Source of the DNA: Acidobacteriota bacterium
GTDB taxonomy: Bacteria; Acidobacteriota; Terriglobia; Terriglobales; Acidobacteriaceae
Assembly (NCBI GenBank): GCA_013289875.1
Contig: JABCZC010000021.1
Span: 1-64,000, forward strand
Reading direction: 5' to 3'
Length of the DNA stretch: 64,000 bases
The notes beneath the pieces were generated by a model, which saw only the letters and a list, made by a program, of their open reading frames with translations, searched no databases and had not been told where the DNA came from. This document shows, piece after piece, positions 41,993-49,838 of the stretch (positions within the stretch are counted from its first letter, which is position 1; each line of letters begins with the position of its first letter). The position numbers were made by a program, and so were the translations under genes.

Positions 41993-44900
41993 CTACTCCT
42001 TTTCCGACACAAATACTGCGGTTGTCAGCGCGGGGACGGTGACGCTTCCCGCTTTGGAGTCGTAGGTGGATTGGCGGGTGGCTGGGTCGCTGGAGTTTTG
42101 CTGGACCGGGTGCAGGGACAGTTTGAGACCCTGCAGGCGTCCGTCGGTGAAGGTGGTTTGAGAGTTGGCGGCGTTGAAGACCACGACGACGTGTTTGTAG
42201 ATGCCATAGTTGCCGCCGTTGGCGTCGAGCTTCATAACGATGAGGCCGGGCGTCTGGCTTTGTCCGGTGTTGAGGAAGGTGAGGTTCTGCTGGACCTCAG
42301 TGAATGTCGGCATGCGGAAGAGGCCGGAGCTGTAGCGGATCTGCAAGAGCTCACGGAAGGCTTCGCCGCTGTAGGCGATGTTGGCGGGTTGCGGTGTGTA
42401 GGCGGAGTTTGAGAGCAGCGGTGTCATGATGGGCCACTGGCCCTGGTTCTGGCTGGCGATGGGCAGGCCGATGCCCCAGTTGGCGGTCTTGCCGCTCCAG
42501 TCGATCTTGTTGAACCAGTCTCCGGAGTTGTAGCTGTTCTGGTCCATGTCTTTCGAGCGGAGCAGGTCGTCTGCGGCCTGGAAGAAGGGAATGCCTTCGC
42601 CGAGAGTAACGAGGGACATGCCCATGACCTGGCGGCGAGCGCGCGTGGCGATGGGGTCGTTGAAGGAAGCCTTCAACTGCACGGCGTCGAAGAGGTCCTC
42701 GTTGTCGTGGACGGAGCAGTAGTTGACGGCTTCGATGGGGGACTTGGTGTACCCGGTGGGCTGGCCGTTGTAGTTGACTTCGGCTCCGGTAACGGTGGCT
42801 CCGGTCGAGTCGGTGAAGGTGTAGTCGCGCAGGTTGCCGGTGAGGCCGACGAGGATCCAGTCGGTGTATTGGCCGAGTTGGGCCTGCGGACTGGGTGTCG
42901 GCGGGTTAGCGTTGGTGTAGTCACTGGAATCGGTGAAGAGTCCGGTGGCGAAGCCCTGCACGCGTTCGTCGGTGAAGGGGCTGCCGCCGCGGATGCCGTC
43001 ACGGATGCGGTCGTTAAAGGTGCCGATGCCAAAGCCGTAGAGGTTGACCTGCGAGGCGTTGGGGCCGATCTGGTTATTTTCGGTGTCTCCGAAGTTGAAG
43101 CCTTCTCCGTAGAGATAGATCTTCGATCCGTCGACGCCGTCTTTGTCAGGCGTGAGGGCGCGGAGGGCCTTCTGGATATCGGTCATGTTGTAGGTGAACA
43201 TGAAGCTCATGATGTCGAAGCGGAAACCATCGATCTTGTACTGGGTCGCGTTGAGGACGAGTGAGTCGATGATTAGCTTCTCCATCATTTTGTGTTCGGC
43301 TGCGGTGTCGGGACAGCAGGAGCCTTCTTCGAGATTGCCGTTCGCGTCGAGACGGTGGTAGTAGTTCGGGACCACTTCGTCGAGATTGGAGTTAGGGCCT
43401 TCGCCGCTGGCGTTGGTGTGGTTGAAGACAACGTCCTGTACGACGCGCAGCCCGGCGTTGTGGAGGCCTTCGACCATGATGCGGTATTCACGGACGCGGG
43501 TGTTGGGATTGATCGCGTAGCTGCCCTCGGGGGTCATGTAGTGGACGGGGTCGTAGCCCCAGTTATAGGCCGGGCTAGTCTGGCTGGCGGTCACGGCTGC
43601 CTGCTGCTGCGTGCCGTCGGGCGGATACTGCAAGAGGCCGGTGGGGATGATCCAGGTGGATTTGTCTTCGTTCACGCTGGCGAAGTGGAAAGAGGGAAGG
43701 ATGTGGACGGCTACCAGTCCACTCTGGGAAAGCGAGCGAAGGTGCTTCATGCCGTTTGAATACTGATCGCTGAAAGCTTCGTATAAGCCCTGGTGCGCAG
43801 CGGGGACGGTGGGATCATTCACGCTGAAGTCGCGGACGTGCAGTTCGTAGACGCTCATGTCGCTGAAGCTCCGCAGAGGGGGTGAAAAGCTTTCATCCCA
43901 GCCGGAGGGCTTGGTTTCGTCGGAGTCGAGGTCAGTGATGCGGCTCTTGGTGCCGTTGAGAGCGATGTCGATGGAGTAGGGGTCGCTGGTGAGGTTGGTG
44001 TCGACTGCGGAATCGGAAGGAACCCAGACCTTGACGCTATATAGGTAATACTTGTCGCGCCAGTTGGGATTGCCGCGCGCGACCCAGACACCGTTGTGGT
44101 TGTGCATGGGGATGACGGCGGCGGGTGAGGTGTCGGAGGCGTTGTTGAAGAGCTGGAGCGAGACACTCTGCGCGGTGGGGGCCCAGACTTTCACCTTGAT
44201 TGCGCAGTTCTCATCGTCTGCCCAGTCGTGCCAGCCGTGCTGGTCGTCATGATGGAAGACGACGCCCAGCTTTCCTGGGTAGTAATAGATATCGTCGAGG
44301 GCTCCGGCGAACTGCAGGCCGGTGGCGTAAGTGATTGTCCCGCTCGAGTTCACTGCAGAAAAGGCGAGCTGACCCTTAAGAGCGGTCTCGATCTCGGAGA
44401 GCTGAATATCAGGCGGAATCGTAAGAACGGTGTAGCCGCTCAATTGGGGATAACGGTATAGCTCGTCCGCAGTGAGGCTGCCGCCGAGCGTCAGAGGAAT
44501 GTTCGTACCGCCGGTAATGCCGGTGGGAGTGACGGAGAGACCTCCGGTGAGGCTGTAGGAGAGGGCGTAGGTGTCGCCGCTTTGGGCGAATTGCGGCTGG
44601 ATGGCTACGCGCTGGCGATCGAGCCAGTAGGCCTGCTCAACGTTGAGAAGGGCGGCGAGGATCTTGGCGGGGGTGGGCACGGATGTGTACACCGTGGCAC
44701 TGCCGGAAATCACCCAGGCCTGGAGGTACGTATTCACGTTGAGATACATGTTGGGCCCGGGATCCTTTACTCCAGTCGAAGTGTTGTGGACGATGAATCC
44801 AATCTGCTGCGCGTTGGCGATCAGAGCGATATCAAAGTACGCGCCATAGGAGTCGTATTGGGTGACGAAGGTGAGGCCGTCGTTGTAGTCGCCGGTGTAT

Positions 44901-45448
44901 TCGGCCGTGTCTTCGAAGGCGTAGACGGACCAGTTGGAGTAGTTTCCGTCGGGGCGGTAGTAGTGAATGCGGGCGTATCCAGGGAGCAGGGCGTTGGGAT
45001 TGCTGAGGTTGATGGGTTTGTCGTACAGCTTGCCGATTCCGGAGTAAGCCCAATATTCGTTGCCCATGGTGGAGGGGTCGACAAACTCGTTGGGGCCGGG
45101 ATCTTTCTGGTCGCCGCCGGGGGCGGTGGGGTTATGAATGATGAGGCCGACGTTCTGCGCGCCGGAGGTGACGCCGACGTCGAAATAGGCGCCGTAGCCG
45201 TCGGTTCCGGTGACCTGCACGGGGCCGCCGTTGTAGTCGCCGGTGTTTTCCGTGGTGTCGTAGAAGGCATAGACGGTCCATCCGCTGTAGTTGCCGTCAG
45301 GGCGGTGGTAGTGGATGCGAATGTCACCGGACGGGATGGGCGGATCAGACTGCGCGAGGGCTGAGGAAAATGCGAGGAATGCGAGGAGAAGCATGAGCAG
45401 GGCAGCCGCGGCTCTGCGCAGAAGGCAATAGGCGAGATTGAGTCTCAT
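41993..45448 (-). CDS. pulA: Secreted type I pullulanase with two CBM41 domains
   Basis: 1151 residues. A Sec signal peptide (AAAALLMLLLAFLAFSSALAQS) is followed by two tandem CBM41 starch-binding modules at about 42-140 and 155-260 (IRIHYHRPDGNYSGWTVYAF and ARIHYYRPDGNYSNWSVYAF). A CBM48-like region and the GH13 barrel follow. Catalytic motifs are visible: the nucleophile Asp in YKIDGFRFDIMSF, the acid Glu in YLYGEGFNFG and the third Asp in CSVHDNEDLF. It hydrolyses alpha-1,6 links in pullulan, glycogen or amylopectin outside the cell. CAGGAGAT precedes the ATG. Confidence 0.95.
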   Translation of the reverse strand: MRLNLAYCLLRRAAAALLMLLLAFLAFSSALAQSDPPIPSGDIRIHYHRPDGNYSGWTVYAFYDTTENTGDYNGGPVQVTGTDGYGAYFDVGVTSGAQNVGLIIHNPTAPGGDQKDPGPNEFVDPSTMGNEYWAYSGIGKLYDKPINLSNPNALLPGYARIHYYRPDGNYSNWSVYAFEDTAEYTGDYNDGLTFVTQYDSYGAYFDIALIANAQQIGFIVHNTSTGVKDPGPNMYLNVNTYLQAWVISGSATVYTSVPTPAKILAALLNVEQAYWLDRQRVAIQPQFAQSGDTYALSYSLTGGLSVTPTGITGGTNIPLTLGGSLTADELYRYPQLSGYTVLTIPPDIQLSEIETALKGQLAFSAVNSSGTITYATGLQFAGALDDIYYYPGKLGVVFHHDDQHGWHDWADDENCAIKVKVWAPTAQSVSLQLFNNASDTSPAAVIPMHNHNGVWVARGNPNWRDKYYLYSVKVWVPSDSAVDTNLTSDPYSIDIALNGTKSRITDLDSDETKPSGWDESFSPPLRSFSDMSVYELHVRDFSVNDPTVPAAHQGLYEAFSDQYSNGMKHLRSLSQSGLVAVHILPSFHFASVNEDKSTWIIPTGLLQYPPDGTQQQAAVTASQTSPAYNWGYDPVHYMTPEGSYAINPNTRVREYRIMVEGLHNAGLRVVQDVVFNHTNASGEGPNSNLDEVVPNYYHRLDANGNLEEGSCCPDTAAEHKMMEKLIIDSLVLNATQYKIDGFRFDIMSFMFTYNMTDIQKALRALTPDKDGVDGSKIYLYGEGFNFGDTENNQIGPNASQVNLYGFGIGTFNDRIRDGIRGGSPFTDERVQGFATGLFTDSSDYTNANPPTPSPQAQLGQYTDWILVGLTGNLRDYTFTDSTGATVTGAEVNYNGQPTGYTKSPIEAVNYCSVHDNEDLFDAVQLKASFNDPIATRARRQVMGMSLVTLGEGIPFFQAADDLLRSKDMDQNSYNSGDWFNKIDWSGKTANWGIGLPIASQNQGQWPIMTPLLSNSAYTPQPANIAYSGEAFRELLQIRYSSGLFRMPTFTEVQQNLTFLNTGQSQTPGLIVMKLDANGGNYGIYKHVVVVFNAANSQTTFTDGRLQGLKLSLHPVQQNSSDPATRQSTYDSKAGSVTVPALTTAVFVSEKE

Positions 45449-48203: not shown

Positions 48204-49838
48204 ATGGCCGGAGCCGAGGAAATCTCGCGAGAGGAACTGACCGCGTTACTGGACCTGGCGGGAGAGTTGTCAACCCAGGTAGATCACCGAAAGGTGGTCA
48301 CCGCCGTTCTGGAGCGCGCGTGCGCTTCCACCAATTCTCCTGAAGGTTCGCTCCTGCTCTACGACCCGATCCGCAGGGGATTGTACTTTGCCGCGGCTCG
48401 CGGTCCGAAGGGCAACGAATTACTGCAAAAGTTTGGCGAGCACTCCAATCAGAGGATCCCCCTCGAAGGCAGCAAGGCGGGCCAGGCGTTTCGGTCCGGA
48501 GAGATCACCGTATCTTCCAACGTTCAGGAAGATGCGGACCACTTCAAGAGCGTCGATGACCAGATCAAGAATGTAACGGTGTCCGTGATTTCCGTACCGC
48601 TGCAGATTGCGGGTTCGATGGTTGGGGTACTGCAGCTGCTGAACAAGATGGACGCGAACGGCCAGTACTGCCCCTATGATGAACATGATTTTGCCCTGCT
48701 GCAGTACCTGGGAAGGATTGCCGCGGCGGCCATCAACAGTGTCCGGCTGCTTCAACGGCTTGTGGCGCAAAGCGGTTTGTATGCACGCAATGGCGTATCC
48801 CAATACCTTGAAGTCATCGATCAGCCCGCGCGCCCCGAACGCCTGACAGCCCTGTTTGCGGATATGCGCGGATTTACTCAGCTCTGCCAAACCCAATCTG
48901 ACGCCACGCGCACGCAGGAGATCCTGAACGACTTTCTCGGGATGCTGGCCAATCAGGTCCTGCGTCGCGGCGGAATCGTGAACAAGTTCGTCGGAGACGC
49001 GATCTTTGCTATCTTTCAGGGCGACAAAGCGGCGGCGGCGGCAGTTCGCTGCGCCTTTGACATGCTGGAGCGCTTCGATAGCCTGAGGCATCGCTGGATG
49101 AACGAGTGCAATGAGGATGTCAGCTTCATGGATATCGGCATCGGGATTGCCACCGGGACAGCCGCTCTAGGCAGCTTCGGCAGCGCTGAAGTGAAAGACT
49201 TCACGGCGATCGGCACGATCGTCAATCTCGCTTCGGCCTTCGAGTTCGCCGCGCGCAACGGCCGGCGTGTGCTCGTGGATAAGGCTACCTGGACGGGTTC
49301 ACAGGATATTGTTCTGGAGGCCGAGGGACCTCTACCCTTCGATCTTGGAAAGCCCGATCAGAACGTCAAAATCAGATATCAGCACTATTGGCTGAAGCGT
49401 CTTACGCCGGATCGGCCGGTGCGTGTGTTTCTTAGCCACAATCATAATGACCGGGAGTATGTGGAGTCGCAAATCCGGGAACCTTTGGCGGTCCGAAACG
49501 TCGAGACCTGGTACGCGGAACAGGACATCATTCCCGGAGAAGAATACGTTCGCCGTATTGAGGACGGCCTGCTCAAATGCGACTGGATGCTGGTGATCCT
49601 GACGACAAACGCCGCGACCGACTGGGTGCGGGCAGAGGTGAATACTGCGTTGAAGGACCCGCGGTTCCTGGGCCGGGTTGTGCCGGTGAGAGTGGACGAG
49701 ACTCTGCCTTCTCAGATTGGCTCGACCTTGGGCCCGCTGGAGGCGCTGGATGTTCGTAGCTCTGCAGACCCCGGAGAGACGATCTATCAGTTCCTGGTGG
49801 AACGCGAGCGCCAGCTTCGCGCCGGGGCGGCCAGTTAG
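48204..49838 (+). CDS. GAF - class III nucleotide cyclase - TIR fusion protein
   Basis: 544 residues from the ATG at 48204 with GGGGTGAT upstream. Residues 15-175 are a GAF sensor (LLLYDPIRRGLYFAAARG, SVPLQIAGSMVGVLQLLNK). A class III cyclase domain (about 210-385) has metal aspartates D220 (ALFADMRGF) and D265 (NKFVGDAI), adenine-type K261 and D332. Of the transition-state pair, Asn341 is present but the usual arginine four residues later is Ala345. Residues 405-544 are a TIR domain (RVFLSHNHND) with the NADase-type Glu478 in DWVRAEV. Probably cytoplasmic; GAF ligand unknown. Confidence 0.93.
   Translation: MAGAEEISREELTALLDLAGELSTQVDHRKVVTAVLERACASTNSPEGSLLLYDPIRRGLYFAAARGPKGNELLQKFGEHSNQRIPLEGSKAGQAFRSGEITVSSNVQEDADHFKSVDDQIKNVTVSVISVPLQIAGSMVGVLQLLNKMDANGQYCPYDEHDFALLQYLGRIAAAAINSVRLLQRLVAQSGLYARNGVSQYLEVIDQPARPERLTALFADMRGFTQLCQTQSDATRTQEILNDFLGMLANQVLRRGGIVNKFVGDAIFAIFQGDKAAAAAVRCAFDMLERFDSLRHRWMNECNEDVSFMDIGIGIATGTAALGSFGSAEVKDFTAIGTIVNLASAFEFAARNGRRVLVDKATWTGSQDIVLEAEGPLPFDLGKPDQNVKIRYQHYWLKRLTPDRPVRVFLSHNHNDREYVESQIREPLAVRNVETWYAEQDIIPGEEYVRRIEDGLLKCDWMLVILTTNAATDWVRAEVNTALKDPRFLGRVVPVRVDETLPSQIGSTLGPLEALDVRSSADPGETIYQFLVERERQLRAGAAS

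What the first reader, a model, noticed from the sequence alone, without database searches (positions are those of the whole stretch)
48204..49838. GAF-nucleotide cyclase-TIR in one polypeptide, with a defective transition-state pair and an intact TIR glutamate
Seen: a 544-residue chain with a GAF sensor, a class III cyclase with both metal Asp (220, 265) and adenine-type Lys261/Asp332, and a TIR domain with Glu478 in the NADase position. The cyclase lacks the Arg four residues after Asn341 (Ala345). Known: class III cyclases use Asn and Arg to stabilise the transition state, and many bacterial TIR domains use this Glu to cleave NAD+ or make cyclic ADP-ribose isomers. Inferred: the cyclase-fold domain may now be a nucleotide sensor or a weak cyclase that controls the TIR domain, giving a GAF-to-TIR signalling or cell-death device in one gene. 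No separate effector or defence genes flank it.
Basis: partly seen in the sequence, partly recalled or inferred. Interest (0 to 1): 0.78.

Follow-up and report, generated by a model that had tools for sequence, protein, structure and literature searches.

The report
GAF, Arg-less cyclase and TIR fusion
This soil-bacterium gene makes one protein that joins a small-molecule sensor, a nucleotide-cyclase domain missing one catalytic arginine, and a TIR domain of the kind that can destroy NAD+; relatives in three phyla all lack the same arginine, so the protein looks like a self-contained nucleotide-sensing switch for a possible cell-death or signalling enzyme rather than a broken gene.

Summary
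In detail: window 48204-49838 (+) encodes a 544-aa GAF / class III cyclase / TIR_2 protein with D220, K261, D265, D332, N341, A345 and E478 as stated. The missing Arg is not a one-off defect. I found 11 further genomes with the same GAF-cyclase core, in Acidobacteriota, Gammaproteobacteria and Thermodesulfobacteriota. All 12 lack the transition-state Arg (10 Ala, 1 His, 1 Asn); all 59 other cyclases compared keep it. The Arg-less set is one clade (100/99) with a single loss. The metal Asp pair and Lys261 are kept in all; Asn is also lost in two. The TIR Glu is kept in all 11 TIR-bearing members. Close relatives show purifying selection on the cyclase domain (dN/dS about 0.06-0.08). One lineage carries another TIR subtype on the same core; the deepest member has no TIR. 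No gene neighbour recurs. The GAF is closest to cAMP/cGMP-binding GAFs. Best reading: a cyclic-nucleotide-type GAF plus a nucleotide-binding, catalytically weakened cyclase dimer gates a TIR NADase in one polypeptide. A slow active cyclase whose product feeds back on the GAF remains a live rival. Biochemistry is untested.

The parts
48204..49838 (+). GAF - class III cyclase (transition-state Arg absent) - TIR protein, 544 aa
   Evidence: translation; Pfam; AlphaFold2 mean pLDDT 79, pTM 0.47
48282..48734 (+). GAF domain (residues 27-177)
   Evidence: PF13185 1.3e-12; family GAF profile best matches 1ykd CyaB2 4.5e-22, 5w10 Lcd1 8.8e-19, 1mc0 PDE2A 2e-18
48837..49292 (+). class III nucleotide cyclase domain (residues 212-363)
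   Evidence: PF00211 2.6e-11; 3r5g CyaB 2.2e-21; Foldseek 3r5g TMt 0.83
48861..48863 (+). metal-binding Asp220 codon
   Evidence: D in all 70 aligned cyclases
48984..48986 (+). adenine-type Lys261 codon
48996..48998 (+). second metal Asp265 codon
49197..49199 (+). adenine-type Asp332 codon (Glu in L093 and L112)
49224..49226 (+). transition-state Asn341 codon (Ile in L093, Val in L112)
49236..49238 (+). Ala345 codon where other class III cyclases have the transition-state Arg
   Evidence: one-clade loss
49254..49256 (+). Arg351 codon, family-specific basic residue 6 positions after 345; candidate compensating Arg
49425..49763 (+). TIR domain (residues 408-520)
   Evidence: PF13676 1.4e-19; family profile matches AbTIR NAD+ hydrolase 8g83 at 2.1e-15
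49635..49637 (+). TIR Glu478 codon (WVRAE), the NADase-type Glu
   Evidence: aligned with the W..E of 3h16 and AbTIR; kept in every TIR-bearing member

Best explanation
A single-polypeptide ligand-gated TIR enzyme. The GAF domain (cAMP/cGMP-binding type) and a homodimeric cyclase-fold domain form the input module. The cyclase fold probably still binds metal and NTP through D220, D265 and K261, but has lost the Arg that stabilises the transition state, so it works as a nucleotide-occupancy sensor and dimer relay (at most a very slow cyclase). A change in cyclic nucleotide or NTP state rearranges the dimer and brings the C-terminal TIR domains together, which then cleave NAD+ through E478. The consequence would be NAD+ depletion or an ADP-ribose-type signal. 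Shown: domain order, residues, family-wide Arg loss by a single event, purifying selection, TIR Glu retention, modular TIR exchange. Inferred: ligand of the GAF, nucleotide binding by the cyclase fold, NADase activity, gating, biological role.
For: Arg absent in 12/12 members and present in 59/59 other cyclases. One clade 100/99, one change, with columns 341 and 345 left out of the tree. Members were found by a DNA motif around D220-Q229 and by profiles, not by the Arg site. Metal Asps and Lys261 invariant; Asn also lost in two members, as expected if turnover is relaxed but binding is kept. dN/dS 0.06-0.08 in the cyclase domain among three close symbiont sequences, and the cyclase is the best conserved domain between P0001 and the Bryobacterales homologue (67% against 52% GAF and 57% TIR). 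TIR Glu kept in all 11 TIR-bearing members. TIR profile matches AbTIR NAD+ hydrolase. GAF profile matches CyaB2, Lcd1 and PDE2A, which are cAMP/cGMP-binding GAFs (Lcd1 is cAMP-activated, PMC8846402). Precedents: FimX degenerate GGDEF senses GTP (PMC8846402); inactive cNMP cyclase domains in bacterial conflict systems proposed to bind nucleotide or regulate (PMC7159879); PycTIR activated by cyclic-nucleotide-driven oligomerisation (PMC11224242).
Against: No biochemistry. Asn341 is retained in 10 of 12, which a pure sensor would not need. Arg351 is gained in the family and might substitute. Ma1120 is an active cyclase without the canonical Asn (PMC4215837), so atypical transition-state pairs can still be active. 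P0001 has Ile at GAF position 121 where the cAMP/cGMP GAFs and most members have Thr.
Confidence: 0.52

Rival explanations
1. One-polypeptide Pycsar-like loop: the cyclase is still active (slow, or helped by Arg351), makes a cyclic nucleotide, and the GAF of the same protein binds it and switches on the TIR.
For: Metal Asps, Lys261 and mostly Asp332/Asn341 kept; GAF of the cyclic-nucleotide-binding type; a basic residue at 351 gained in the same clade in which Arg345 was lost; all 11 scanned members hit PADLOC PycC cyclase profiles (but those profiles probably match class III cyclases in general).
Against: Arg345 absent in all members and Asn also lost in two; position 351 sits nearly two helical turns further on, probably too far from the phosphate (inference; no coordinates could be measured).
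Confidence: 0.22
2. The TIR is a protein-interaction or assembly module, not an enzyme; the output is dimer or filament assembly or binding to a partner.
For: Many TIR domains act as scaffolds (general knowledge); the TIR subtype changes between lineages, and one member has no TIR.
Against: The catalytic-position Glu is kept in both TIR subtypes and in all 11 members; closest solved relatives include NAD+ hydrolase AbTIR.
Confidence: 0.14
3. The TIR makes a cyclic ADP-ribose type messenger for an effector encoded elsewhere, Thoeris-like, rather than depleting NAD+.
For: The TIR region matches ThsB and SAVED-TIR profiles.
Against: No effector gene lies next to the window gene or next to homologues whose flanks are held, whereas Thoeris genes are adjacent.
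Confidence: 0.1
4. Decaying relic with no function.
For: In one Terriglobia genome the gene is split at contig ends by what looks like an insertion with a 9-bp target duplication; patchy distribution.
Against: dN/dS 0.03-0.09 over the whole gene between close relatives; intact frames in three phyla; TIR Glu and metal Asps never lost.
Confidence: 0.02

Closest known systems
CyaB1/CyaB2-type GAF-regulated class III adenylate cyclases (Anabaena; 1ykd GAF structure)
   Same: cAMP-binding-type GAF in front of a class III cyclase; the family GAF profile hits 1ykd best
   Different: single GAF, catalytic Arg lost, TIR added at the C terminus
Pycsar (PycC cyclase + PycTIR)
   Same: class III cyclase fold and a TIR effector coupled through nucleotide sensing
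   Different: one gene instead of two; GAF instead of the CRP-like CNBD of PycTIR; cyclase lacks Arg; no adjacent effector gene
Degenerate GGDEF domains acting as GTP sensors (FimX)
   Same: cyclase-fold domain inferred to have become an allosteric NTP sensor for a C-terminal enzyme
   Different: class III cyclase and TIR instead of GGDEF and EAL
Lcd1 (GAF-GGDEF, Leptospira)
   Same: cAMP-type GAF controlling a cyclase-fold domain in one chain
   Different: Lcd1 is an active diguanylate cyclase and has no TIR
Thoeris ThsB, SAVED-TIR and other bacterial TIR effectors, AbTIR
   Same: TIR fold with the catalytic-position Glu
   Different: different regulatory domains; no match over the whole protein

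Membership tests
Class III nucleotide cyclase (catalytically competent) | two metal-binding Asp | tested here: met
   D220, D265; invariant in all aligned rows
Class III nucleotide cyclase (catalytically competent) | substrate-base Lys and Asp (adenine type) | tested here: met
   K261, D332; D332 is Glu in two members
Class III nucleotide cyclase (catalytically competent) | transition-state Asn-Arg pair | tested here: not met
   N341 present, Arg replaced by Ala/His/Asn in 12 of 12 members
Class III nucleotide cyclase (catalytically competent) | cyclic nucleotide formation | not testable with these tools
   needs an assay
Cyclic-nucleotide-binding GAF (CyaB2/PDE/Lcd1 type) | sequence and fold similarity to cNMP-bound GAFs | tested here: met
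   1ykd 4.5e-22, 5w10 8.8e-19, 1mc0 2e-18; Foldseek 5w10 TMt 0.81
Cyclic-nucleotide-binding GAF (CyaB2/PDE/Lcd1 type) | VDxxT...T and NK...F/Y...DE ligand-site motifs | tested here: inconclusive
   VD, NK, Y and D kept, but P0001 has Ile in place of the first Thr, and the final Glu is not kept in other members
TIR NAD+ glycohydrolase | TIR fold with Glu after the Trp/Phe motif | tested here: met
   E478 in WVRAE; Glu in all 11 TIR members
TIR NAD+ glycohydrolase | NAD+ cleavage | not testable with these tools
   needs an assay
Pycsar | PycC pyrimidine cyclase next to a PycTIR or PycTM effector gene | tested here: not met
   no effector gene flanks the window gene or any homologue whose flanks are held
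Thoeris | ThsA next to ThsB TIR | tested here: not met
   only the TIR region matches ThsB profiles

The most novel reading that the evidence does not exclude
A self-contained nucleotide-signalling switch: one protein carries a cyclic-nucleotide receptor (GAF), a repurposed cyclase dimer that reads nucleotide occupancy (or makes its own second messenger slowly), and the TIR NADase it controls. The GAF plus Arg-less cyclase is a sensor module that has been joined to at least two different TIR types.
Probability: 0.4. Interest if true: 0.8.

Novelty: new variant of a known kind. Interest (0 to 1): 0.62.

Why it matters
Known class III deviants such as Ma1120 and Rv1900c lose the Asn and keep the Arg. 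A clade that did the reverse once, kept it across three phyla and coupled the domain to a TIR offers a clean natural test of whether a class III cyclase fold can become a nucleotide sensor, and a new way of gating bacterial TIR enzymes in one gene. It also warns that a PycC profile hit need not mean an active pyrimidine cyclase.

Tried and rejected
A genome-contig scan with P0001 alone found nothing. Viral scans with A2 and A3 found no relative, and with A5 only one ordinary cyclase that keeps its Arg. The plasmid search gave only generic cyclases covering at most 55% of the query among the rows listed, none with 80% coverage. Considered and rejected: a one-off defect (family-wide loss); a relic (purifying selection); membership of Pycsar or Thoeris (no partner genes); a conserved operon (neighbours differ in the genomes whose flanks are held). 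Geometry of a compensating Arg could not be measured because model coordinates are not exposed; Foldseek gave only scores. Literature searches found no paper describing GAF-cyclase-TIR; subscription papers are mostly not held. Locus handles could not be used as centres of genome searches until they were turned into genome handles.

Full report
What is there. Window 48204-49838 (+) is one intact ORF of 544 aa. Pfam gives GAF_2 27-177, Guanylate_cyc 212-363 and TIR_2 408-520, all above the curated cut-offs. Against solved cyclases CyaB (3r5g, 2.2e-21) and CyaC (1wc1, 1.5e-18) the cyclase domain aligns over nearly its whole length, with A345 opposite the Arg. AlphaFold2 with the family alignment folds all three domains (mean pLDDT 79; pTM 0.47, so inter-domain placement is not reliable), and Foldseek matches 3r5g (TMt 0.83), CyaC and the Lcd1 GAF-cAMP structure 5w10 (TMt 0.81).

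Family. No orthologue was found in eight genomes of the same genus or in 28 others of the same family. A phylum scan found one full-length homologue (L036/P0002, 44% over GAF-cyclase). A class scan added two. A degenerate DNA motif for DMRG[FY]xxLCQ, conserved between those four and unrelated to the Arg site, was scanned across 84,980 species genomes; it recovered the known ones and added members in Bryobacterales, Ca. Thiodiazotropha, a Ctena symbiont, a Geobacteraceae and a Desulfobulbaceae genome. Two more came from the order of Thiodiazotropha. In all there are 12 genomes in three phyla; 11 carry a TIR, and the Desulfobulbaceae member stops right after the cyclase tail, about 210 bases before a contig end. 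The family is sparse: 3 of 399 genomes of the class, 3 of 200 of the order of the Bryobacterales member, 1 of 195 of the class of the Geobacteraceae member, 1 of 145 of the class of the Desulfobulbaceae member (12 hits, of which the 11 weaker ones keep the Arg), and 5 of 210 of the Thiodiazotropha order. These samples overlap in part.

The missing arginine. Position 345 is Ala in 10, His in one and Asn in one of the 12. In 59 other cyclases from the same and related genomes, including paralogues in the same genomes, it is Arg in all 59. A maximum-likelihood tree of the domain with columns 341 and 345 removed puts the 11 members tested in one clade (100/99), so one loss is enough. The program warns of long branches between this clade and its apparent sister, so the sister group is uncertain. 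Both metal Asps and Lys261 are invariant in the family. Two members have also lost the Asn (Ile, Val) and have Glu for Asp332. Family-specific changes include Asp to Asn at 260, and Arg351 (R in 10, K in one of the aligned members), which is rarely Arg elsewhere. Arg351 is the best candidate I see for compensation.

Selection. Among three close symbiont sequences dN/dS is 0.06-0.08 in the cyclase domain and 0.03-0.09 over the gene (few changes, so rough). Between P0001 and the Bryobacterales homologue the cyclase is the most conserved domain, 67% against 52% GAF and 57% TIR. The Arg-less domain is therefore being kept for a function.

TIR. The catalytic-position Glu is present in all 11 TIR members. 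P0002 and P0007 carry another TIR subtype: 19-28% identity to the other TIRs, while their GAF and cyclase domains are about 41-54% identical to the same partners. The core has therefore been joined to at least two kinds of TIR. A family profile hits AbTIR NAD+ hydrolase at 2.1e-15.

GAF. A family GAF profile hits CyaB2 (1ykd), Lcd1 (5w10) and PDE2A (1mc0) best; these bind cAMP or cGMP (Lcd1: PMC8846402; CyaB2 and PDE2A from general knowledge). The ligand-site motif is largely but not fully kept in P0001, so binding is a lead, not a result.

Context. No defence or effector gene flanks the window gene, and no neighbour recurs around the homologues whose flanks are held. It is a stand-alone gene. 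PADLOC's PycC and ThsB hits cover single domains only and reflect generic homology.

Mechanism. I favour a ligand-gated TIR enzyme in which GAF and the Arg-less cyclase dimer are the input. Precedents for the logic are FimX, in which a degenerate GGDEF senses GTP (PMC8846402), the catalytically inactive cNMP cyclases noted in bacterial conflict systems (PMC7159879), and PycTIR activation by cyclic-nucleotide-driven oligomerisation (PMC11224242). The main rival is a slow active cyclase whose product acts on its own GAF. Known atypical class III cyclases lose the Asn and keep the Arg (Ma1120, Rv1900c and relatives; PMC4215837, PMC4886424), the opposite of this family.

Limits. Sampling was capped; 12 genomes is a lower bound. 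No paper on this architecture was found in the open-access library, but subscription papers are mostly missing. No activity, ligand or phenotype was tested.

Noticed in passing
L070:10820-10934 and L071 3' end (Terriglobia MAG, G701): The homologous gene is split between two contig ends with a shared 9-bp CTTCGCCAC and a near-terminal inverted repeat CTTTCTGTAAATT on both sides, which looks like an insertion-sequence interruption of the cyclase domain.
   Followed up: partly
L076:6185-7384: Desulfobulbaceae GAF-cyclase member without TIR but also without the Arg; it branches first within the Arg-less clade, so Arg loss may predate the TIR fusion (or the TIR was lost).
   Followed up: partly
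L093:1579-3285 and L036:979-2709: Same GAF-cyclase core with a different TIR subtype and a longer linker: evidence of effector exchange.
   Followed up: yes
L112 (G942): Most eroded member: Asn to Val, Arg to Ala, Asp332 to Glu, yet metal Asps, Lys and TIR Glu are kept.
   Followed up: partly
window genome G000: C54, C20, C39, C133: Weaker TIR matches at three places and one distant class III cyclase (in a 1131-aa frame) elsewhere in the same genome.
   Followed up: no
window 41993-45448 (-): 1151-aa pullulanase-type alpha-1,6-glucosidase with two pullulanase-associated domains.
   Followed up: no
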